A stretch of DNA of 64,000 nt from Bacteroidota bacterium (GTDB lineage: Bacteria > Bacteroidota > Bacteroidia > Chitinophagales > LD1), in contig JAFDYQ010000005.1 of the NCBI GenBank assembly GCA_018267365.1, positions 1 through 64,000 on the forward strand, written 5' to 3'. This document shows positions 1,181 to 11,668 of the stretch, in pieces; position 1 is the first letter of the stretch, and every line of letters begins with the position of its first letter. The position numbers and the translations under genes are program-made. Under the pieces are notes generated by a model. That model was given only the letters and a program-made list of their open reading frames with translations, did not search any database and had not been told where the DNA came from.

Positions 1181-1839
1181 TTTTGGAAATTTACACTAGC
1201 CCATACTTCTATATCCCAACAACAATATTTGGCCTTATTGCCATTGTCTCTTCATGCCTTTACCTATATTTTCTGAATCGTGATAAAAACATCTTGAGCA
1301 GAATAGAATCCACACCTGAAAAAGATCGCGCGAAAGTGATCGAGATGACCTTAAACGATTTCGGAATTAGGGTGAGTACAACCGGAATGAGTGAAGAAAG
1401 TAAATTAGAAGTCATAGGGAAAATGATAAGAGCAAAAGAACGTAGATACCTCATTGTCGCTATTACATCATTCTGTATAGTTTTAGTGTTATCGTTTCTT
1501 GTGTACTTTATGAAAACTGACAATCCAACCTTGCGAGAAAGTGACCGCCAAGCAAAAGTCGATAGTATACAATTAAGCGATACTAGTGATTCAACTACAA
1601 AATTAATAAAACCACAAGTCAATAGTCATCAAGACGCATCAGATGAAAACCATAATAAAGTAAAAGCTGATAAAAAGGATTTCCCGACTAATCAGAGTCC
1701 TGTACCGCAAGTAAAATCGCAAAAGGAATCTTACCCCTCAACAGATCATACTCAGACTAATAACGGCTCGCATAACTTGAATGTGAACGACAACAGAAAT
1801 GGAACTATTAACTATACTCATATTGATACAAGTAAATGA
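1177..1839 (+). CDS. Two-helix membrane protein with C-terminal NLNVNDNR segment
   Basis: A 220-residue protein. Helix 1 spans about residues 9-32 and helix 2 about 89-111. Between them lies a charged region (DRAKVIEMTLNDFGIRVS..., residues about 50-88) with predicted helices. After helix 2 comes a long Ser/Thr/Lys/Gln-rich linker, then a terminal segment (residues 193-213) containing HNLNVNDNRNGTINY. The same segment recurs near the N-terminus of the next gene's product. The start overlaps gene 1 and the end overlaps gene 3 by ATGA each. The N-terminal part resembles membrane-anchored bacterial adaptor proteins in layout only; no function is assigned. Confidence 0.7.
   Translation: MILEIYTSPYFYIPTTIFGLIAIVSSCLYLYFLNRDKNILSRIESTPEKDRAKVIEMTLNDFGIRVSTTGMSEESKLEVIGKMIRAKERRYLIVAITSFCIVLVLSFLVYFMKTDNPTLRESDRQAKVDSIQLSDTSDSTTKLIKPQVNSHQDASDENHNKVKADKKDFPTNQSPVPQVKSQKESYPSTDHTQTNNGSHNLNVNDNRNGTINYTHIDTSK
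1753..1815 (+). repeat. NLNVNDNR segment, copy 1
   Basis: This stretch encodes 21 residues, including HNLNVNDNRNGTINY. The stretch at 2037-2099 encodes the same segment with few changes (HNLNVNDNRGGTINY). The two DNA copies differ at many codon positions while the peptide is kept, which suggests conservation of the protein segment rather than a recent duplication. Confidence 0.8.
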
Positions 1840-3887
1840 AATACGTGCTATTTTTATTCATTCTGCTTACGAATACCTCCGATGCTCAAGCTGTCCGCGC
1901 TAATAAGAACAACGGAATTAATGTGTTCGGAAACAATTCTAATAGTGTTGTTATCAATTATTCTAATGGCACAGTTATCAATATCCCTAACAACTCTGTT
2001 ATCAACTATCCTTATACAACCGATGATAGGCCTAAACAAACTAATACAGGTGATCACAACCTAAATGTAAATGATAACAGAGGCGGTACCATAAATTATT
2101 TAAGTGGACCGCAAGTTCAAACTCCTACCCATGTCCTTAAAATTAGAACCAACACTAAAAGCTATATTTATGTGGATGGGAGGCTTCGTGATAGCGTTAC
2201 GGTAGAAGCTCCGGCTATTATTGAACTTAAATCTGCTGGAATATATGCACTGAGGCTGGTAAGCGCATATTATAGTGACTGGATTATTGAACAGGATTAC
2301 CGTGTTGAAAAAACAGATATTGGCACTTCAACTTATGCATTTTTGAATTTCAAGATATCCCCTTATTTACATCCTGTACATAAAGTCGACAAGGGTAAAT
2401 ATGCCTATTTCAACATCTACACCGGAGAACTTGTGACATTGTTTAAATATGAAATAGCGAGCGAATTCAACGAAGGAGTTGCTACAGTGGGACTTGACGG
2501 AAAACTCGGTGCACTAGATGATTATGGTATGGAAAGAATTCCATTGACTTATGACCCATCAACAAAATTCAACTTTCGAAATGGTTATTCTGAGGCAATT
2601 AAAAATGGCAAGTACGGACTCATTGATGAAAATGGAAAGGCAACCGTTCCATTTATTTATGATTTTCTTTCATATTCTGGCGACAAATATGTGAGAGCAG
2701 TAATGAAAAATACATGGGGATATGTCGACACATTGAACAATGTTATTATACCATTTAAATACACATACGTCTCAGAAATTGACGGTAATTGGATTAAGGC
2801 AGCAACAGGTGGTTGGACATTCATGATGTTTAACACAGAAGCGAACGACGAATCGAAAGTTTATAACGCCAAATGGGGTATTATTGATCTTCAAGGTAAC
2901 GTGGTTCTGCCAGTTGCATATAGAGATGTCCTAACTAAAGCAACAGATGCACCTTCAATGCCATTACGGATGCAGAATGCAAGAATGGTTCCTGTCCAAA
3001 AGGAGTTGGATTGGAATTTCATATACTTAGGCAACTGGAAGGAAAAAAGCTTTGGCCCCTTCGCGGATGTCGATAATATTAGTAAAGACATGCTCAGAGT
3101 TGGAGTGATAGATCATAAGAATTGTAGGAAAAATAAAAAATCACCAGACGATTGCGAGAAGTATGGCTGCTTATCAAATTTCGGGCGTCAAATTTTACCT
3201 ATAAAATACGATAACATTTTTTGTTCTGAAAACATTCTTTGGATATCCAAAAATGACAGTATAGGCTTTTATAATGTTGACTCTAATCGTCAAATAACTG
3301 ACTTGATATATGAGTTTGGATATAGCGGCAAAACGAGTATGACTGAAGCATTTATTGGTGGCTTGGCAAAAGTTTATAAGAATGGATACAGCGGCTTCAT
3401 CAATAAAAGAGGTAAAGAAATAATCCCTGTTGAAAACAAGCCTGGAGGGTGCCATAGTGCCAAACAGTTCGGCAACTTTCATATTGTTGGAGTAAATGAC
3501 AAATTTGGAATTATTAGGGATGATGGGACTTGGGTGACTACGATGGACTATGATGAAATATTATTGGCAAGCAATGACAATGGCGCAAAGTACGAGAATG
3601 TGATTGCAATTTTAATCAGGAATGGTAAGTACAGGTATATAACAGCAACTGGGAAAATGTTGAATAATAAAGATTACGATTACGCGGGAGGATTTTGGGG
3701 GCACACAGGTATAGCAATTGTCGGGAAAGAAAATAAGTATGGTCTTATAAATATTAAAGGCTCCCAAATAGTACCTTTTATTTACGATTACATTAAAGTC
3801 ATTTCAAAAGATTTTATTGAAGCGCATGTCAATGACGAAGTAATGTATATCAACGACAGTGGACGTTGCTTATACGGATGTCATTAA
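1836..3887 (+). CDS. Secreted WG-repeat protein
   Basis: A 683-residue protein with a signal peptide (about residues 1-20, MKYVLFLFILLTNTSDAQA). The next roughly 45 residues are Asn/Val/Ile-rich, with NNSNSVVINY-like short repeats. The shared NLNVNDNR segment follows at about 68-88, then a PEGA-like beta domain (about 100-165, with SYIYVDGRL). From about 185 to the end run WG/KWG-type repeats, for example GKYGLIDENGK, NTWGYVDTLNN, AKWGIIDLQGN and NKYGLINIKG. WG repeats form beta-propeller-like arrays and are common in secreted or surface proteins of unknown role. It is the last gene of the coupled operon 962-3887. The operon is more AT-rich than the transfer genes beside it, so it is probably cargo of the element. 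Confidence 0.85.
   Translation: MKYVLFLFILLTNTSDAQAVRANKNNGINVFGNNSNSVVINYSNGTVINIPNNSVINYPYTTDDRPKQTNTGDHNLNVNDNRGGTINYLSGPQVQTPTHVLKIRTNTKSYIYVDGRLRDSVTVEAPAIIELKSAGIYALRLVSAYYSDWIIEQDYRVEKTDIGTSTYAFLNFKISPYLHPVHKVDKGKYAYFNIYTGELVTLFKYEIASEFNEGVATVGLDGKLGALDDYGMERIPLTYDPSTKFNFRNGYSEAIKNGKYGLIDENGKATVPFIYDFLSYSGDKYVRAVMKNTWGYVDTLNNVIIPFKYTYVSEIDGNWIKAATGGWTFMMFNTEANDESKVYNAKWGIIDLQGNVVLPVAYRDVLTKATDAPSMPLRMQNARMVPVQKELDWNFIYLGNWKEKSFGPFADVDNISKDMLRVGVIDHKNCRKNKKSPDDCEKYGCLSNFGRQILPIKYDNIFCSENILWISKNDSIGFYNVDSNRQITDLIYEFGYSGKTSMTEAFIGGLAKVYKNGYSGFINKRGKEIIPVENKPGGCHSAKQFGNFHIVGVNDKFGIIRDDGTWVTTMDYDEILLASNDNGAKYENVIAILIRNGKYRYITATGKMLNNKDYDYAGGFWGHTGIAIVGKENKYGLINIKGSQIVPFIYDYIKVISKDFIEAHVNDEVMYINDSGRCLYGCH
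2037..2099 (+). repeat. NLNVNDNR segment, copy 2
   Basis: Second copy of the 21-residue segment, in the N-terminal region of the WG-repeat protein. It lies after the signal peptide and the Asn-rich repeats and before the PEGA-like domain. See the copy at 1753-1815. Confidence 0.8.
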
Positions 3888-4067: not shown

Positions 4068-4970
4068 CTAAACCTCTCGCCCTGGGCTTTCTTCTTTATC
4101 TAGCTCTTTTATCAGTTCTTCTTCCATATTCTCTTGTTCAATTTCTTCTTCAACTTCATACGTTCGCTCTCCACGTATATCTGCAAAACTTGCCAATCTT
4201 TCAGATCGCTCCTCTAATTCCTGCATCTTATCATTGCCAAAACCGAGTGTGCTAAATCGGTAATGCCTGTTGTCATCTACTCCCGAAATCTGCCCACCTC
4301 GCTCAAATAACTTCAAATTGCTCCTTACATTATCGTAGAATTCCTCCTTACTCATCGCCACGTCAAAGCTCTTTTCTAAAATCTCCTTGATTTCTTCCTT
4401 TCTGGATGCTTTGCCAGTATGCAGCTCTAATTGATATTCTCTGTCAGATTTCTCCTTTATCCCTTTTCCGTGCTGAACCCCTGAGTGGGTCAATCCTAGC
4501 TCTTTCTCATAACGCTGCATTTCTTCCTTTATAGATTGGAACTCTTTAATTGGAATAGATATTGGCTTTCCGCTATAGGCTTCTATTCCACTTACCATAA
4601 CATGAATGTGTCTATGACTTTCCTTATCGATATGAGCGGCGGCGAAGTAAAGCGCCTTATCATTTCTAAGCTCACTATACTTGCTCACTATTTTTGCAAT
4701 TACCTCGGGGCTCAGCTTATCAGTATCTCCTGAACGATAAGAAAAGATGTCATGATAAAGTTTGACTTCACCCTTACGATGCTTTGCTCTATTTCTTTCA
4801 TTATCCAAAAATTCCTTCTCAATTTCCTCAGTAGTCCGTCCCATAAGATTATGCCTAAAATACAACGGCATTCCTTTGGCATCTCGCATTACGGATTGCG
4901 GTTTGGAAATATACGCGGCTAACTGCCCGAATGAAGCTGATTTGCGGGTAAATGACCTAAGAATGCTCAT
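4068..4970 (-). CDS. Relaxase / mobilization nuclease
   Basis: A 300-residue protein that nicks and covalently holds DNA at oriT. The metal-binding motif is clear: H113-x-D115 ... H119-R-H121-I-H123 (HIDKESHRHIHVMVSG), with a candidate nucleophile Tyr20 in LAAYISKP. The C-terminal third is charged and probably coiled coil (EEEIEQENMEEELIKELDKEE). I chose the start at 4970 (MSILRSFTRK). It overlaps the end of the mobC-like gene by 14 bases, whereas the longer frame would overlap it by 101. It is the last gene of the leftward transfer operon. At 300 residues it is compact and has no helicase domain, as in mobilizable rather than self-transmissible elements. Confidence 0.88.
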   Translation of the reverse strand: MSILRSFTRKSASFGQLAAYISKPQSVMRDAKGMPLYFRHNLMGRTTEEIEKEFLDNERNRAKHRKGEVKLYHDIFSYRSGDTDKLSPEVIAKIVSKYSELRNDKALYFAAAHIDKESHRHIHVMVSGIEAYSGKPISIPIKEFQSIKEEMQRYEKELGLTHSGVQHGKGIKEKSDREYQLELHTGKASRKEEIKEILEKSFDVAMSKEEFYDNVRSNLKLFERGGQISGVDDNRHYRFSTLGFGNDKMQELEERSERLASFADIRGERTYEVEEEIEQENMEEELIKELDKEESPGREV

Positions 4971-5505
4971 CGACAATACTTCTGAGTGTATTGATAAAGT
5001 CAGGATTTCGTTTGATAGCAGATACGATTTCGTCATAGAGCTTTGGCGGATTAGCAAAAGCCTCCGTTACTTCTTCTCGTATCTTGGCAACAACCTTACT
5101 CAAATTCTCATAGTCATTGTCAGCTTTGAACCATCTACCCTTATCCCGATCCTGTATTTGCTGAATTGAACTCTGGCACCTCAGCAATGCCTGCAAAATC
5201 CTATCCAATACAATCTTATCTCTAATGACAAATGACGAAGTGAGGTAAGCGCTAATGGCTTTTTTCATTAGGGTATTCTCAGTTAGGTTATGCTCTTTGG
5301 CAGCTTTTCGGATTATTTCCGTCTCAGTGCGCTTAAAAGATAACGTATAGTGCTGGTTCCTCCGGCGTTCGTTCCTCTTATAAGATTTCATGTATAAACG
5401 CCTGTATTCCGCCTTTAAGGCGCGCAATTCGTCCCCGCAAGCATCAGTCTTGCCCAAGCCTTCGAGATAAGCCCATAACGCACTATTTCGCTTTACTGCC
5501 TTCAT
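4957..5505 (-). CDS. MobC-like relaxosome accessory protein
   Basis: A 182-residue protein. Residues about 50-90 (HYTLSFKRTETEIIRKAAKEHNLTENTLMKKAI, read in parts) fit a ribbon-helix-helix DNA-binding fold as in MobC/MbpA-like proteins. The flanking region is basic (YKRNERRRNQ), and the C-terminal half is helical and acidic-basic mixed. Such proteins bind oriT and help the relaxase load. It overlaps the upstream coupling-protein gene by 23 bases and the relaxase by 14, so co-translation is likely. Confidence 0.75.
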   Translation of the reverse strand: MKAVKRNSALWAYLEGLGKTDACGDELRALKAEYRRLYMKSYKRNERRRNQHYTLSFKRTETEIIRKAAKEHNLTENTLMKKAISAYLTSSFVIRDKIVLDRILQALLRCQSSIQQIQDRDKGRWFKADNDYENLSKVVAKIREEVTEAFANPPKLYDEIVSAIKRNPDFINTLRSIVDEHS

Positions 5506-6949
5506 CTAGCTTTAGGATAGGGATTACGTCAGGAATAAGCGTATTGCGATACTTAAAGGGAGGCAGATCAGTTTTCAACTTTAAAAAGGGCTGTTCAAAG
5601 TAGGGAGTAACCTTAACTTTCAATGGATGCTTACAATGAGCTGAGATAACAATCGCCTGATCAGGCTTCATGTTGCGTATGTCTTGGCTCAGCATCAACG
5701 GTCTGACCTTTACTTTTCCGTCTGCCTGTACATACTCAGTCTTACCAAGCAAGCTTTCCAGGTCTTGGCTTGTCTTCAATCCCTGCCCACTTAGATAAAC
5801 CTTAGTACGCGAAGCGTTGCGAATGCTCTCAGCTTCCGCTATTCCGAAGTTGTGGTCTATTTGGCTATCGGATTGCCATAGGGTCATCAGTCCACATCTA
5901 TACTTGCGTAAATTATTTAATATGTTTCCGAATTCTATATTGAGAGTACTTGCCTCATCGGCAATTATGAATACGTCGAGATCGTCCTTTTGAGGCAGCC
6001 TTGACATCAATACCCGAAGGGCAGTGTCGAAGAAAATCGAAATAAGTCCAGAGTACATTTTACTATCCAGTGTAGGTGTCTCAACGATGATGCAACACGG
6101 CTTTCGTCTTATCGTCTTCAGGTCAACGGTATTAACCGCAGTCGATTTGCAGACTGCATCGCTGTACCATAGTTGCAGTGCGGACTGGGTGCTAGCGATA
6201 ATTGACTTCAAGACCTTGTCTTCCATCGCAATGAAGCCTTCGTATTCCTTTGCAAGATCATTATCTGCCCTTGCAAAAAGCTTATCGAGCGATCTTTGAT
6301 TCGTAGCAAGCCTATTCAGCAGGAATTTCAGATTGTATATGTTCCTATACCGTGCTTCCTGCTTATTCAGAATCGCAATCAAAATATAAAGCAACATAGA
6401 GGTTTGAACTTGCCAGAAGTTATCACCAGTACCAGGCTTTAAAAAGCCCGCAAGTAAGAAAGCCAGCTTAAAGCAATCCGATTTAGTTTCGAGAAAGTCA
6501 TAGGGATTAAATGAGCTGGAATTATACGGATCGTCGAATTTAATAATTTGAACATCCGAGCCTACGCTTGTTAAGTAGGGGGCAACAATCTTTGCATCGC
6601 CCGAAGGACAGTTAATAATCATCGACGCGCTTGAACCGATGCTTAGCGCGCTCGGAATCACAAGAGCTGATGTCTTACGCGATCCAATAGGACCAATACA
6701 TAACACATTTTCATAACTTGTTTTTCGCGAGAGGCACCCATCAGCACTTCCTGTAACGCAAAAGCCACCATGATTGCCATCTAGCAGATCGCATTCATCA
6801 CCGAATTTAGCGCTATACGTGCGGTTATCGTGCTCGCCAAAGCTCTCGATGGCGGTGAGCGTTTTATCAACGATAACATCGCTCACCACTTTGCTCGCAG
6901 CACCTAGATACTGCAACAATCCCATAATATGTGTCCCTGCTCGTTCCAA
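5483..6949 (-). CDS. VirD4/TraG-type coupling protein (T4CP)
   Basis: A 488-residue ATPase that brings the relaxosome to a mating channel. The nucleotide-binding loop is at residues 86-94 (GPIGSRKTS), a Walker B-like segment is VFIIADEAS at about 325, and the sensor region is LMTLWQSDSQI. The family's usual N-terminal membrane pair is not obvious here; the small membrane protein encoded directly upstream (6951-7145) may supply it. The Walker A loop has Arg91 where the family normally has Gly before Lys, and the codon reads CGT. An alternative start is ATG at 6925 (MGLLQYLG). Gene order T4CP-mobC-relaxase fits a mobilization operon. Confidence 0.85.
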   Translation of the reverse strand: MERAGTHIMGLLQYLGAASKVVSDVIVDKTLTAIESFGEHDNRTYSAKFGDECDLLDGNHGGFCVTGSADGCLSRKTSYENVLCIGPIGSRKTSALVIPSALSIGSSASMIINCPSGDAKIVAPYLTSVGSDVQIIKFDDPYNSSSFNPYDFLETKSDCFKLAFLLAGFLKPGTGDNFWQVQTSMLLYILIAILNKQEARYRNIYNLKFLLNRLATNQRSLDKLFARADNDLAKEYEGFIAMEDKVLKSIIASTQSALQLWYSDAVCKSTAVNTVDLKTIRRKPCCIIVETPTLDSKMYSGLISIFFDTALRVLMSRLPQKDDLDVFIIADEASTLNIEFGNILNNLRKYRCGLMTLWQSDSQIDHNFGIAEAESIRNASRTKVYLSGQGLKTSQDLESLLGKTEYVQADGKVKVRPLMLSQDIRNMKPDQAIVISAHCKHPLKVKVTPYFEQPFLKLKTDLPPFKYRNTLIPDVIPILKLDEGSKAK

Positions 6950-6950
6950 C

Positions 6951-7145
6951 TCATATCCTATCTGGGAACAAATACATCTTGATTTTTCTATTGAGAGCCC
7001 TCAGCCAAATTTCAAGCATGCTAGTAACGATGTAAACAATAAACACAATGATCCTCCATAGCACACTCAGGATAAACCTGCATATTTTCCAAGCCCCATC
7101 GCCCAGCATTGCCCATGTTTCCTTACTAGCTTTCAAGCCTTCCAC
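6951..7145 (-). CDS. Small membrane protein of the transfer operon
   Basis: A 64-residue protein with one long hydrophobic stretch (about residues 22-44, FILSVLWRIIVFIVYIVTSM) between amphipathic ends. It overlaps the upstream lipoprotein gene by 20 bases and stops one base before the coupling-protein start. I recognise no family. By position it may be a membrane partner or anchor for the coupling protein, whose own N-terminus lacks an obvious membrane pair; this is inference. Confidence 0.6.
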   Translation of the reverse strand: MEGLKASKETWAMLGDGAWKICRFILSVLWRIIVFIVYIVTSMLEIWLRALNRKIKMYLFPDRI

Positions 7146-7842
7146 CGCTTATGATCACGCGGGCTCCTCGTTCTTCACAAATCTTTTTAAACAGCGAAGC
7201 AATGAGAGCATAGCGCTTAGAGCTTTCGTAGTTTGGCGCGTTATAGATTAGCTGTATGGAAACGCCTTTGAGATTATTATTGATGGGCGTAGCCTTGATT
7301 ATGATCTTTTCTACTTCTTCAGGATGGTTATAGAGCATATCCATGTCGGACTTTTTATAAACCGAAAAGAGGTCTGAGTTTTGGTGCAAGTCGGAGCAAA
7401 AAATCGCATACTTCTCCATGACGTTCTGAGACGCCAGTTCGTTCAAAGCCCTCGCTATTGGTCCGAATATTTCGGACTTGGATTTACCTAATGGCTGTAG
7501 GCTTACCTGCGCAAAAGCCAATGATATGCGAGCGTTAAAGTCATTGATAGCTTTGCTTCTTTGTCCAGGATTTTGCATAAGCTTTTCCTGCGGCGCTATC
7601 TCAAAACTTACAGATGGGGCATACTGCAAATCCGATATGGGTTCGATTTTGAATCGTCCGCCCCACGTATCTCGTGCGCGAAGATTGTAGAGGCGTCGGA
7701 CATCTTCGACATCCGGCAGGCTCATTTCCGAACCGGTTTGGTCGATTAAAACAAGTACTGATACTTCCGGGGAAGGACCTTTTAGCTCATTACATGATAC
7801 GAGCATAAGACAGATTAATAGGCAAGTTGTTATTGCTTTCAT
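7126..7842 (-). CDS. Lipoprotein with vWA-like domain
   Basis: A 238-residue lipoprotein. The signal peptide ends in the lipobox LVSC with Cys17. The mature part opens with VLVLIDQTGS, where D34-x-T36-x-S38 fits the first metal-ion-dependent adhesion (MIDAS) motif of a von Willebrand A fold. Later segments (FGPIARALNELA, YAIFCSDLHQNSD, VSIQLIYNAP) fit the alternating helix/strand pattern and a second acidic loop. vWA domains mediate metal-dependent protein contacts. It overlaps the upstream gene by ATGA and the downstream gene by 20 bases. A lipoprotein of this kind co-transcribed with mobilization genes is unusual; its role is unknown. Confidence 0.65.
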   Translation of the reverse strand: MKAITTCLLICLMLVSCNELKGPSPEVSVLVLIDQTGSEMSLPDVEDVRRLYNLRARDTWGGRFKIEPISDLQYAPSVSFEIAPQEKLMQNPGQRSKAINDFNARISLAFAQVSLQPLGKSKSEIFGPIARALNELASQNVMEKYAIFCSDLHQNSDLFSVYKKSDMDMLYNHPEEVEKIIIKATPINNNLKGVSIQLIYNAPNYESSKRYALIASLFKKICEERGARVIISGGRLES

Positions 7843-8873
7843 GATTGTTGATTTTTATTGTTTTGAAAAAGCGGCATGGTCAACGCCGAATGGTCGAATT
7901 TCATATTTGGCTTACGCCAGGATAGTTCCTTGTAAAACAGGGATAGCGCCTGTCTGCATAGGTTTTCAACTAATGCCTCGCATTGAGCCTGCTCTCCGGC
8001 AAGATCTGAGCGGCCTCTACGTTTCGCGTCGGACTCATGAGTGACGTTTTTGCTGTTTTTCTGACACTCTGCAATCTTCTTTTCCGCCTTCTTTATTTCC
8101 TTGCTTAGTCGGTCGAACTCGCTCTTTGCAAAACGCTCCTCCGCGTTTGGAAACTGCATGGCGACTATTGTCGCTCCGCCAAAAATGAGCGCCTGTATCA
8201 CCACAAAAGCAAGGGCAGTAACTATCGTTTCAGTGGAAAAAGCTACAGTGCCTCCGTTTGTGACAGAAAAGCTTCTGAGTAGGGCAAGGGCTGCAAAAAC
8301 AATGAGCATAAGCCAGCTAAAACTTCTGATGATTTTTACCTTCTCATGAGCAGGCTTGCCTTTTATAGACGTTCCTAGATGGATTGCAATAACGGACAAC
8401 GAAACTGCCGCGACAAAAGCGGGGACGATGGCAAAAAGCACATTTCCTCCTCCGACGGTAAAGCTCTGGACATTGTAGCTTGCTTCAGCTACAAAGCCCA
8501 CTACCTCCATCATTGCGTAAAACACATATGTCGCCCAGTTGAACCTTACTTTATGCCCTTTGCGCTCTCCCTCAGCAATGCGTTTCGCCTCCTTAGCTTC
8601 CGACAATTCTGCATCAAGAGTTTTATTGTCCTCATTGGCGCGCTTATCATCGAATTGCTTTTTAGCTTCTTCTTCTTGATAGGACTGTCTTACATACACC
8701 AATATTTCTTCATATGCTCCAATAAGGGCTAGTTCTGAAATCTTTATTTGGTCCTGTCCGGCATTCGCATCAGCTAAGCTTTTAGCTTCACTTGGGATGT
8801 TATACTTTATCGATTCAGCATTCGTATAGATGTACGATAAAAGTTCTGAGTTATTTGTAATTGTCTCTTCCAT
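7839..8873 (-). CDS. Four-helix membrane protein with coiled-coil arms
   Basis: A 344-residue protein. Residues about 1-105 are hydrophilic and end in a coiled coil (AKKQFDDKRANEDNKTLDAE). Four membrane helices follow at about 112-132, 143-163, 187-204 and 219-242. A second coiled coil (about 250-280, FDRLSKEIKKAEKKIAEC) and a soluble tail come last. No family is recognised. The start is one base after the preceding gene's stop and the end overlaps the lipoprotein gene by ATGA, so it belongs to the transfer operon. The layout suggests a scaffold linking cytoplasmic partners to the membrane. Confidence 0.65.
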   Translation of the reverse strand: MEETITNNSELLSYIYTNAESIKYNIPSEAKSLADANAGQDQIKISELALIGAYEEILVYVRQSYQEEEAKKQFDDKRANEDNKTLDAELSEAKEAKRIAEGERKGHKVRFNWATYVFYAMMEVVGFVAEASYNVQSFTVGGGNVLFAIVPAFVAAVSLSVIAIHLGTSIKGKPAHEKVKIIRSFSWLMLIVFAALALLRSFSVTNGGTVAFSTETIVTALAFVVIQALIFGGATIVAMQFPNAEERFAKSEFDRLSKEIKKAEKKIAECQKNSKNVTHESDAKRRGRSDLAGEQAQCEALVENLCRQALSLFYKELSWRKPNMKFDHSALTMPLFQNNKNQQS

Positions 8874-8874
8874 A

Positions 8875-9942
8875 TTATTGTGCTTTTGATGTGGTAAATG
8901 ATTTCCGCTCTAATTCGCTTCTATCAGCAAGACTAATAGAGTCAACAATCGATACTGTGCCGTCCTTGTAATAGATATTGCCCATTTCGTCATAGCCATC
9001 TATTTCTAATTGCTTCTCCCGCTTCGGAATCATTTTTGCATACTGGTCATTTGAAAGAACAGGATCAATCTCAAAAACTAAGAAGCTGTCACCGGGATAT
9101 GACACTTCACCAAGTGCGCGGTCGGGCCATGTAGCTTCTGCAAAAACATACTTCGTGCCGCTAGGTCCTTCGAAGTAGGGTCCAGTCCAACCATCGATGG
9201 CTATGCCCGATGCCATGTGCCTGCCCGGATAAACGACCAGACAAGATTTTTTGCCTAGATATGCCATGCATATAGAAAATAATAAAGCATGGTCATCACA
9301 GTCACCTCGATTATCCAAAATTGTCAGGATCGGTGAACGGAGGTATTCTTCGGGACCGGGAGGGTCGGCTTCTCGGGGTATACTGTGCGTCCAAGCAAGA
9401 ACACATCCTGCCATATCCTCCTCGGAAAAATGCTCATGGTTGGCAATACCTTTCAATTGGCTCGTGATTTGATCCATGTATGGATAGTACTTATCCTCTC
9501 TCAAATAGCTGAAGAATGACAGGCTTTTGGGGACCGCATTGTAAAAATTGTAGATGCCGATAGCTTCGGTGAATTGGAGGTTGTACTGATTTTGCTTATA
9601 TACCCACTTTGAATCAGTTGAATAATATTTCCCGTCTTGAATTTTGGGTTTTGGCGGCTCAGCAACATCTGTTTTCTCGCATGATGAAAGAAAAAGCAGC
9701 CACATTATAATAGTGACCGAGGCTTTAACCTTTGATGCTATGACCTTAGGAGGTATAAAGGGACCGATATAGACGTCCTGATAAAAAACCTGATCACACT
9801 TTGACCTTTCGGTATTTTGCAGAGCATCGTCATCAAGGTTTTGCTTCTCACTTGAGCCACTTCGGCTGTTAGATTTTCTTTTCGTTTTCTGGTCGAAAGT
9901 TCCTTTTTGTTTTTTGCTGCTTTTATTTGTATAAACTGACAT
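8875..9942 (-). CDS. Membrane-anchored transglutaminase-like cysteine protease-fold protein
   Basis: A 355-residue protein and the first gene of the leftward operon. A basic hydrophilic N-terminus of about 70 residues is followed by one hydrophobic segment (about 74-88, ASVTIIMWLLFLSSC). That segment ends in a lipobox-like LSSC, but it lies too far from the start for a normal signal peptide, so an internal signal-anchor is more likely. The catalytic core follows: Cys215 in NRGDCDDHALLF, His242 in YPGRHMASG and an acidic third residue (Glu269 or Asp274 in AEATWPD). This matches the transglutaminase-like/BTLCP triad, found in periplasmic proteases such as LapG. Substrate unknown. Confidence 0.7.
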   Translation of the reverse strand: MSVYTNKSSKKQKGTFDQKTKRKSNSRSGSSEKQNLDDDALQNTERSKCDQVFYQDVYIGPFIPPKVIASKVKASVTIIMWLLFLSSCEKTDVAEPPKPKIQDGKYYSTDSKWVYKQNQYNLQFTEAIGIYNFYNAVPKSLSFFSYLREDKYYPYMDQITSQLKGIANHEHFSEEDMAGCVLAWTHSIPREADPPGPEEYLRSPILTILDNRGDCDDHALLFSICMAYLGKKSCLVVYPGRHMASGIAIDGWTGPYFEGPSGTKYVFAEATWPDRALGEVSYPGDSFLVFEIDPVLSNDQYAKMIPKREKQLEIDGYDEMGNIYYKDGTVSIVDSISLADRSELERKSFTTSKAQ

Positions 9943-10705: not shown

Positions 10706-10945
10706 TCACCTTGTCTTATCTAGGTCATTATTTATCTCCTTATCGTTCCTTATTTTTTCAAAGTCATTTTCACGTTCCTTTTGTTGGGTCCGCTCATATT
10801 CCGCCCCTCCGTCGATAACACCCTTTTCGTATTCGGATTCCACCGAAAGCGACGGCTTAAGCTTTTCAAACAATTCAGGATTGTACTGCCTCAGGCGATA
10901 GCCGGTATTAAAACCGGAGATATATGACTGCTCCTCTTGTTTCAT
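10706..10945 (-). CDS. Small charged hypothetical protein
   Basis: A 79-residue, highly charged protein (MKQEEQSYISGFNTGYRL ... NDFEKIRNDKEINNDLDKTR) predicted to be mainly helical. Its start overlaps the stop of the HTH gene by one base (TAATG), so the two are translated together. I recognise no family. Small acidic-basic partners of excisionase-like genes are common at element edges in Bacteroidota. Confidence 0.6.
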   Translation of the reverse strand: MKQEEQSYISGFNTGYRLRQYNPELFEKLKPSLSVESEYEKGVIDGGAEYERTQQKERENDFEKIRNDKEINNDLDKTR

Positions 10946-11223
10946 TACCTTTTAATTGAATGCTTCTCTATAAATTCTAAGATACTGTCTCGGTCGAAGA
11001 GATACACTTTCTTGCTCATTATCGAAACGCGTACAAGCGGTGAATCCTTTATGGCTTGTAACGTCGTTCTACTGGTAATTCCGATCATGCGCATTACTTC
11101 TTCTGAGGTTATCCATTTAGGCTCCTTACTCAAATTGTACTTCTCATCTATGTAGTCAACCGTACGATTGAGAAGTTCGTAAAAAGCACTTGTGTCTATG
11201 CAAATTGATTCCGTATTAGCCAT
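10945..11223 (-). CDS. Excisionase-like helix-turn-helix protein
   Basis: A 92-residue protein. Residues about 37-90 (WITSEEVMRMIGITSRTTLQ ... VYLFDRDSILEFIEKH) carry the MerR-type winged HTH of the HTH_17/excisionase group: an 'E-V-x-x-x-x-G-I-S/T-x-x-T' recognition region and a wing ending in the typical 'Y-x-F-x-x-x-x-I-x-x-F-I'. Such proteins in Bacteroidota elements bend DNA at att sites or switch transfer genes. It sits about 190 bases from the tRNA-Met fragment, the expected place for a directionality factor. No integrase gene is present in the window. Confidence 0.75.
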   Translation of the reverse strand: MANTESICIDTSAFYELLNRTVDYIDEKYNLSKEPKWITSEEVMRMIGITSRTTLQAIKDSPLVRVSIMSKKVYLFDRDSILEFIEKHSIKR

Positions 11224-11404: not shown

Positions 11405-11415
11405 GATTGTTTGTG

Positions 11416-11463
11416 TGGTCCCGCCTGGGCTCGAACCAGGGACCCTCTGATTATGAGTCAGAC
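11416..11463 (-). pseudogene. tRNA-Met(CAT) 3' fragment, probable att core
   Basis: On the minus strand this 48-nt piece has the anticodon stem-loop (TCTGA-CTCATAA-TCAGA, anticodon CAT), variable loop, T-arm (CCTGG-TTCGAGC-CCAGG) and 3' acceptor CGGGACC plus discriminator A. The matching 5' acceptor (GGTCCCG) and D-arm are absent; the sequence before the anticodon stem does not fold into them. This is the typical footprint of tyrosine-recombinase integration into a tRNA 3' half. The intact tRNA-Met must be elsewhere. Confidence 0.75.
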
Positions 11464-11585: not shown

Positions 11586-11595
11586 ATTTATCAAG

Positions 11596-11668
11596 TGATC
11601 CCGGAAGGAATCGAACCTTCGACCAATTGATTAGAAATCAATTGCTCTATCCGCTGAGCTACGGGACC
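11596..11668 (-). tRNA. tRNA-Arg(TCT)
   Basis: A complete 73-nt cloverleaf on the minus strand: acceptor GGTCCCG/CGGGATC, D-stem GCTC/GAGC, anticodon stem ATTGA/TCAAT with loop TTTCTAA (anticodon TCT), T-stem GAAGG/CCTTC with loop TTCGATT, discriminator A. CCA is not encoded. It marks the start of ordinary chromosomal sequence to the right. Confidence 0.95.

What the first reader, a model, noticed from the sequence alone, without database searches (positions are those of the whole stretch)
4068..9942. Mobilization operon that also encodes a transglutaminase-like protein, a four-helix scaffold and a vWA-like lipoprotein
Seven genes read leftward with one-base gaps or overlaps of 4, 20, 23 and 14 bases. 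The last three are DNA-transfer genes (T4CP, MobC-like, relaxase). The first four build a membrane/periplasm module: an anchored Cys/His/acidic-triad protein, a coiled-coil membrane protein, a lipoprotein with D-x-T-x-S, and a tiny membrane protein. Mobilization operons usually lack such parts. A LapG-like protease acting on cell-surface or mating-contact proteins, with the vWA lipoprotein as adaptor, is one hypothesis.
Basis: partly seen in the sequence, partly recalled or inferred. Interest (0 to 1): 0.62.

Follow-up and report, generated by a model that had tools for sequence, protein, structure and literature searches.

The report
DNA-transfer operon with built-in membrane complex
A mobile DNA element in a Bacteroidota bacterium carries, beside the genes that cut and export its DNA, a conserved pair of envelope proteins of unknown kind; relatives keep the pair next to the DNA pump almost without exception, which suggests that it is a working part of the transfer machine.

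Summary
In detail: seven minus-strand genes, 9942-4068, read as one tightly packed unit. They lie in an integrative mobilizable element in tRNA-Arg; a 36-bp copy of the tRNA end, followed by an integrase start, lies on another contig of the same genome. The grouping must change. Core of the transfer unit: four-TM coiled-coil protein (CC), vWA-fold lipoprotein, 50-65-aa one-helix protein, coupling ATPase (T4CP), MobC-like protein, relaxase. Of 32 loci found with the vWA protein alone in 396 genomes of the order, 32 have CC beside or fused to it and 31 have the T4CP directly downstream; the 32nd ends at a contig edge. CC and vWA co-vary with the T4CP as strongly as the relaxase does. The transglutaminase-like protein resembles LapG but occurs in only 3 loci: accessory. 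Outside the order the CC-vWA pair sits in three type III CRISPR-Cas loci, so it is a portable membrane module. VirB4, the ATPase of known mating channels, was found in 2 of 24 carrier genomes. Best reading: CC-vWA-miniprotein is a dedicated membrane adaptor of the coupling protein. A VirB4-free transfer machine is possible but unproven.

The parts
8875..9942 (-). LapG-like transglutaminase-superfamily protein (accessory); Cys215, His242, Glu269; lipobox-like LFLSSC at Cys88
   Evidence: present in 3 loci only
7839..8873 (-). CC: four-TM inner-membrane protein with long cytoplasmic coiled coil; acidic residue in TM1 (E130) and Arg in TM3 (R200) conserved
   Evidence: model pLDDT 88.9; E/D130 in 28 of 28, R200 in 27 of 28; positive-inside counts
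7126..7842 (-). vWA-fold lipoprotein with MIDAS-like D34-x-T36, S123, D151
   Evidence: model pLDDT 92.2; vWA domains fill the VIA list; D34 and T36 invariant in 32 of 32
6951..7145 (-). mini-TM protein, one hydrophobic helix plus amphipathic tail, between vWA and T4CP
5483..6949 (-). type IV coupling protein (VirD4/TraG family), no clear N-terminal TM helix in this copy
   Evidence: Pfam PF02534 3e-33; nearest NCBIfam NF045973 CD1115 family 8e-40, below its cut-off; hydropathy
4957..5505 (-). MobC-like relaxosome protein
   Evidence: 58% identical to L025 copy; no Pfam match over cut-off; near 32 of 34 vWA ORFs
4068..4970 (-). relaxase (MobA/VirD2-like); longest ORF starts at 5057
   Evidence: Pfam PF03432 5e-13; aligned with L025 copy
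10945..11223 (-). HTH_17 protein, excisionase-like by position (inference)
   Evidence: PF12728 2.3e-5, just under cut-off, here and over cut-off in homologs L025 and L066
10706..10945 (-). 79-aa conserved protein next to the HTH gene, function unknown
11589..11624 (-). attachment repeat: 36 bp, exact copy at G000:C32:43385-43420 next to an integrase ORF
11595..11668 (-). tRNA-Arg (TCT), insertion target
1836..3887 (+). WG-repeat protein, probable cargo of the element
   Evidence: PF14903 3.7e-31

Best explanation
The window carries an integrative mobilizable element whose transfer unit brings its own relaxase, MobC-like protein and coupling ATPase, together with a dedicated membrane adaptor for that ATPase. 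CC is a four-TM inner-membrane protein; its coiled-coil arms point into the cytoplasm, where they can dock the T4CP, which in this copy has no clear membrane anchor of its own. The mini-TM protein is a second anchor for the T4CP. The vWA lipoprotein sits in the periplasm on top of CC and, through its metal-site face, binds a partner there: most simply a component of a borrowed mating channel. The LapG-like lipoprotein is an optional extra of this genus that would trim an envelope protein. Shown: gene order, linkage, folds, conserved residues, co-variation, element ends. Inferred: every contact between proteins, the membrane sidedness (charge counts only), the borrowing of a channel, and the protease step.
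For: The vWA search alone gives 32 loci in 23 of 396 order genomes; 31 of 32 have the T4CP next downstream, the other (L084) ends at a contig edge; 32 of 32 have CC upstream or fused (the 34 ORFs include two loci brought in by the T4CP search). Two loci fuse CC and vWA in one ORF (L066, L085). In reverse, 31 of 44 T4CP-family hits at E<=1e-80 in the same order sample have CC and vWA directly upstream. Distances of 24 loci: CC-vWA r 0.61, vWA-T4CP 0.55, CC-T4CP 0.49, against T4CP-relaxase 0.49 and T4CP-MobC 0.47, Mantel p 0.0005 each; the HTH protein at the other end of the same elements does not co-vary (17 loci, r 0.05-0.13, p 0.09-0.35). vWA fold. CC topology N-in/C-in (loop K+R means 0.25, 4.04, 0.64) and conserved TM charges. 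Mini-TM ORF in most loci (profile: 21 of 34; the hydropathy scan finds further ones). Element ends.
Against: 13 of 44 T4CP-family hits lack the pair, among them close ones in Saprospiraceae (L096, L097), so CC-vWA is not needed by every member. The pair also serves type III CRISPR loci without any T4CP, so its role need not be DNA transfer. Co-variation does not show contact: genes of one operon co-inherit anyway. No complex was modelled. Helper channels (VirB4) were not found in most carrier genomes, so the borrowing step has no visible lender there.
Confidence: 0.5

Rival explanations
1. CC-vWA is an exclusion or defence module carried inside the transfer operon: an inner-membrane protein plus a lipoprotein that act on incoming DNA or mating contacts, or that harm the membrane when triggered, as membrane effectors of type III CRISPR systems do.
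For: CC-vWA pairs lie in three type III CRISPR loci: L143 (RAMPs, Cas6), L148 (Cas10/Cmr2, RAMPs, Cas6, RT-Cas1), L161 (Cas10/Cmr2, RAMPs, Csx3, CARF-RelA/SpoT). Known type III systems use membrane effectors (Cam1, Csx23, CorA; passages of PMC11229360). Recalled, not tested: F plasmid places an inner-membrane and an outer-membrane lipoprotein exclusion gene just before its T4CP gene.
Against: Strict position directly before the T4CP and co-variation with it; defence cargo is expected to vary. PADLOC has no good model for either protein of the pair (best E 0.0042, coiled-coil part only). No CARF or other signal-binding domain seen.
Confidence: 0.27
2. CC, vWA and mini-TM protein, with the T4CP, form a small self-sufficient DNA-transfer machine that needs no VirB4-type mating channel.
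For: VirB4 (PF19044) passes its cut-off in 2 of 24 genomes searched as carriers (G529, G730; G417 was included as carrier of a partial unit) and in 60 of 396 of the order, nearly all in family f2; no genome of the window's family f1 is among the 61 matches. Of 30 genomes with a T4CP-family hit at E<=1e-80, 3 have VirB4 over cut-off (G508, G529, G730), against 57 of the other 366. The window genome has three copies and no VirB4 match. No further widely conserved gene family apart from integrases was found within about 10 kb.
Against: Most genomes are drafts, and plasmids or ICEs are easily lost from them. IMEs often sit in genomes without a helper (PMC3158045, passages). A vWA fold and four helices give no obvious route across the outer membrane. 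PF19044 may miss odd VirB4 forms.
Confidence: 0.12
3. The pair is ordinary cargo that happens to be carried by one lineage of elements.
For: It is absent from 13 of 44 T4CP-family loci and is found in other contexts.
Against: 31 of 32 linkage at mostly 20-30% sequence identity, overlap with neighbouring genes, co-variation equal to that of the relaxase while the HTH end does not co-vary.
Confidence: 0.06

Closest known systems
Integrative and mobilizable elements of Bacteroidota with MobP relaxase (NBU1, NBU2, Tn4555, Tn4399)
   Same: Integrated elements with a MobP relaxase and no mating channel of their own (PMC5704250 passages).
   Different: This unit also encodes a T4CP and the CC, vWA and mini-TM proteins.
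IMEs that encode a VirD4 coupling protein (for example IME_SsalCCHSS3_ND of Streptococcus, listed in PMC5704250)
   Same: Mobilization genes plus own T4CP (table passage).
   Different: Other phylum and envelope; no CC or vWA protein named in the passages seen.
VirD4-like CD1115 family coupling proteins
   Same: Best NCBIfam match of the T4CP (8e-40, 137 bits).
   Different: Below that family's cut-off of 250 bits; different neighbours.
LapG (PDB 4fgo, 4u65; entry identity recalled)
   Same: Cys-His-acid motif and the GDC[DE]D stretch; best PDB profile matches.
   Different: Distant (no Pfam match at E<=1); lipoprotein-like; no LapD or LapA homolog was sought.
vWA domains (Rpn10, integrin I, ANTXR, Ku)
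   Same: Fold (Z up to 11.5, rmsd 3.2 over 161 residues) and MIDAS-like residues.
   Different: D-x-T without the second Ser; no Pfam vWA match in any of 32 members.
CoCoNuT systems with TerY-type vWA proteins next to VirB4- or EssC-like ATPases
   Same: vWA proteins and coiled coils near secretion-type ATPases (PMC11090510 passages).
   Different: TerY-type vWA genes and CoCoNuT nucleases, not relaxase operons; homology of the two vWA groups was not tested.

Membership tests
Integrative and mobilizable element | Relaxase present | tested here: met
   PF03432 5e-13
Integrative and mobilizable element | Own integrase and attachment repeats | tested here: met
   36-bp direct repeat C55:11589-11624 and C32:43385-43420, no whole tRNA at the C32 copy, N-terminal integrase domains PF13102 and PF17293 beside it; C32 and C55 are separate contigs, so the join is inferred
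Integrative and mobilizable element | No own mating channel (VirB4) | tested here: met
   No PF19044 match in the window genome; part of the element may lie in the assembly gap
Integrative and mobilizable element | Transfer by conjugation | not testable with these tools
   needs a mating assay
vWA domain | vWA fold | tested here: met
vWA domain | MIDAS D-x-S-x-S, T, D | tested here: inconclusive
   D34, T36 in 32 of 32; S123 and D151 in at least 90%; second Ser of the motif not conserved
LapG / Peptidase C93 | Sequence profile of the family | tested here: inconclusive
   no Pfam match at E<=1; best PDB profile matches at E 2.2e-4 and 3.1e-6
LapG / Peptidase C93 | Cys-His-Asp/Glu catalytic residues | tested here: met
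   Cys215 and His242 invariant in 10 sequences; Glu269 or Asp in nearly all (by eye)
LapG / Peptidase C93 | Cleaves a surface adhesin under LapD control | not tested
   needs experiments; no LapD search was made
Type IV coupling protein | VirD4/TraG ATPase domain | tested here: met
   PF02534 3e-33, TraG-D_C, TrwB
Type IV coupling protein | N-terminal TM anchor | tested here: inconclusive
   hydropathy finds none in this copy but a clear one in several relatives

The most novel reading that the evidence does not exclude
CC, vWA and mini-TM protein with the T4CP are a compact, VirB4-independent DNA export machine of diderm bacteria. CC would be an ion-driven or gated four-TM motor (conserved acid in TM1, Arg in TM3) that links the DNA pump to a periplasmic vWA protein, and the same CC-vWA membrane gate would have been recruited by type III CRISPR systems.
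Probability: 0.1. Interest if true: 0.92.

Novelty: new variant of a known kind. Interest (0 to 1): 0.62.

Why it matters
How relaxase-plus-T4CP elements without a channel get their DNA across the envelope is poorly known outside Proteobacteria. This work gives a defined six-gene unit in which two membrane proteins without a Pfam name co-vary with the coupling protein as tightly as the relaxase does. It points to testable residues (E130, R200, D34, D151) and shows that the same pair occurs in type III CRISPR loci, so one study could explain two systems. It also marks lineages (family f1, much of f3) where such elements occur and VirB4 channels were hardly found.

Tried and rejected
Protease with vWA adaptor as one module: rejected, because the protease profile hits 3 loci only, and the more distant transglutaminase-like hits in the phylum (L087-L093) showed none of the transfer-gene profiles.

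Split coupling protein (mini-TM protein as the lost N-terminus of the T4CP): not supported. Some relatives have both an N-terminal hydrophobic stretch in the T4CP and the mini-TM protein (L059, L067, L072, L076), and the apparently longer T4CPs (L057, L058, L061, L078) were reading-frame extensions over the mini-TM gene.

CC fold: no useful match in the PDB (best Foldseek E 0.042, coiled coils); weak Pfam hits (Halogen_Hydrol 0.002) are below cut-off and probably coiled-coil composition. 8qox at E 5e-4 covers only profile positions 26-120, the coiled-coil arm.

Reach beyond: vWA in plasmids, no match. First genome-contig scan with the window vWA, none; second with a T4CP subset, 10 loci, of which 5 are Bacteroidota with MobC-like and relaxase genes, 4 are labelled Ruminococcus, Clostridia or Oscillospiraceae and one is an unnamed bacterium.

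Literature: no paper holds 'von Willebrand', 'coupling protein', 'relaxase' and 'Bacteroidetes' together (full text of the held library only); listings read, no such operon seen. PMC11229360: the terms vWA, lipoprotein and coiled have no occurrence.

Full report
WHAT IS THERE. Upstream lie a 79-aa gene and an HTH_17 gene, then a tRNA-Arg. The last 30 bases of this tRNA recur exactly once more in the genome, at C32:43391-43420; the exact repeat is 36 bp, no whole tRNA is predicted there, and the next ORF inwards carries integrase N-terminal domains (PF13102 2.7e-7, PF17293 3.8e-7) and runs to the contig end. C32 and C55 are not joined in the assembly, so I infer, but did not show, that they flank one gap. 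The window therefore starts inside an integrative element whose other end lies on C32. In several relatives too a tRNA gene lies within about 400 bases of the HTH gene (L059, L060, L066, L067).

COPIES AND RELATIVES. The genome has a second full copy on C25 (L025) and a third unit without the protease on C44 (L077), in a region with paired integrases and, by eye, copper-resistance-like cargo. A search with the two vWA proteins gave matches in 23 of 396 genomes of the order, 32 loci. I fetched the surroundings and scored all ORFs with profiles built here. With the final profiles 34 vWA ORFs are seen in the order loci, two of them (L108, L112) in loci brought in by the T4CP search: CC beside or fused 33, T4CP directly downstream 32, MobC-like 32, relaxase 31, mini-TM by profile 21. 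The exceptions are L084 (contig ends after vWA), L112 (weak vWA hit, 2e-5), L083 (divergent T4CP, 2e-7; no MobC or relaxase seen) and L072 (contig ends before the relaxase). Of the 32 loci that came from the vWA search itself, 31 have the T4CP and 32 have CC.

REVERSE TEST. A T4CP profile gave 44 hits at E<=1e-80 in 30 of the 396 genomes. 31 have CC and vWA upstream, 13 do not: G548 (two), G501, G613 (two), G398, G508, G669, G740 (second), G573:C1, G665, G556, G695. In G548, G501 and G398 other membrane proteins stand in that place; in G613 only a CC-like fragment does. So CC-vWA is a strong but not universal partner.

CO-VARIATION. For 24 loci with all five proteins (of 30 given; L062, L058, L082 and L066 were dropped for broken, short or fused genes, and L072 and L073 for lacking same-strand partners) the distance matrices correlate: CC-vWA 0.61, MobC-relaxase 0.62, vWA-T4CP 0.55, CC-MobC 0.54, CC-T4CP 0.49, T4CP-relaxase 0.49, T4CP-MobC 0.47, CC-relaxase and vWA-MobC 0.44, vWA-relaxase 0.37; all Mantel p 0.0005, the lowest possible with 2000 permutations. 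The HTH protein shows 0.05-0.13 (17 loci) with p 0.09-0.35. HTH is short, which lowers its power.

PROTEINS. vWA: AlphaFold2 with 32 sequences, pLDDT 92.2, pTM 0.87; Foldseek lists vWA domains first but with E no better than 1.2e-3; VIA-align gives Z 10-11.5 with vWA-type domains in nearly all of 50 rows. D34 and T36 are invariant, S123 and D151 nearly so. The anchor varies: lipobox in most, apparently an uncleaved TM helix in some (L057), fusion behind CC in L066 and L085. CC: pLDDT 88.9, long helix 40-105, four TM helices 116-139, 145-170, 175-204, 214-238, long helix 244-320. K+R counts per loop (0.25, 4.04, 0.64) place both ends in the cytoplasm, which agrees with the fusions, where one more hydrophobic segment puts the vWA part outside. 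Position 130 is acidic in 28 of 28 and position 200 Arg in 27 of 28; CC proteins of the CRISPR loci L143 and L148 keep both. Transglutaminase-like protein: Cys215 and His242 invariant in ten sequences; PDB profile hits are LapG-type entries; a distant relative, L087, matches Transglut_core at 3.9e-4, just below cut-off. T4CP: nearest PDB relatives Cag5 and TrwB.

HELPERS. PF19044 (VirB4 class) exceeds its cut-off in 60 of 396 order genomes but in 2 of 24 carriers. By T4CP-family carriage: 3 of 30 carriers against 57 of 366 others. This is not clear depletion in itself, since lineage confounds it: nearly all VirB4 genomes belong to family f2, most carriers to f1, f3 and small families. What it shows is that the unit occurs where VirB4 was hardly found. 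Tyrosine-recombinase genes are present in all carriers (24 of 24).

OUTSIDE THE ORDER. A 32-sequence vWA profile matched 17 of 296 genomes of the phylum sample, many weakly. I fetched surroundings for 16 of the 17 places outside the window genome. L141 (another family of the class) is a full transfer unit. L142 has a vWA protein beside other, T4CP-like genes. L143, L146 and L148 have CC-vWA pairs without T4CP; L143 and L148 are type III CRISPR loci. A search of 22 genomes of the family of G263 gave two more pairs in G773: L161 is a third CRISPR locus, L160 is not, with a kinase-like gene nearby. The remaining hits are more distant vWA proteins without CC at strong scores.

READING. The pair belongs to the DNA-transfer unit in this order, as far as linkage and co-variation can tell, yet it is portable. 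A membrane adaptor or gate for a cytoplasmic nucleic-acid machine fits both settings better than a protease adaptor. Which partner the vWA face binds, and whether a helper channel is needed, cannot be decided from sequence.

Noticed in passing
L143:7942-9848, L148:5098-7040, L161:7685-9612: CC-vWA membrane pairs inside type III CRISPR-Cas loci; no PADLOC match (L143 and L148 pairs tested) and not named in the passages seen of a 2024 survey of type III effectors.
   Followed up: partly
L161:18102-19352: CARF-type domain (Cas_NE0113) fused to a RelA/SpoT domain in a type III CRISPR locus; a Csx3-AAA protein lies at 6751-7683.
   Followed up: no
window 11413-11463: By eye, a 3'-half tRNA with CAT anticodon between the element and tRNA-Arg, perhaps a scar of an older insertion.
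   Followed up: no
L117 and L077 (G000:C44, about 163000-194000): Third mobilization unit of the genome in an island with multicopper-oxidase and metal-binding genes, paired tyrosine recombinases and a DNA cytosine methyltransferase (names from the sequences, by eye).
   Followed up: partly
L117:1692-2864 and L066:17504-18661: Small TrwB/HerA-like ATPases (385-390 aa), in L117 next to paired integrases; role unknown.
   Followed up: partly
L025:6077-8809: 910-aa ATPase-like protein between tRNA-Val and the mobilization unit, defence-like by eye.
   Followed up: no
L096:4061-5029 and L097:4573-5556: Saprospiraceae relatives carry a J-domain-like membrane protein (by eye, no Pfam match for L096) in place of CC-vWA before the same T4CP family.
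   Followed up: no
L025:10794-11123: Extra 109-aa ORF between the protease and CC genes in the second copy, no Pfam match.
   Followed up: no
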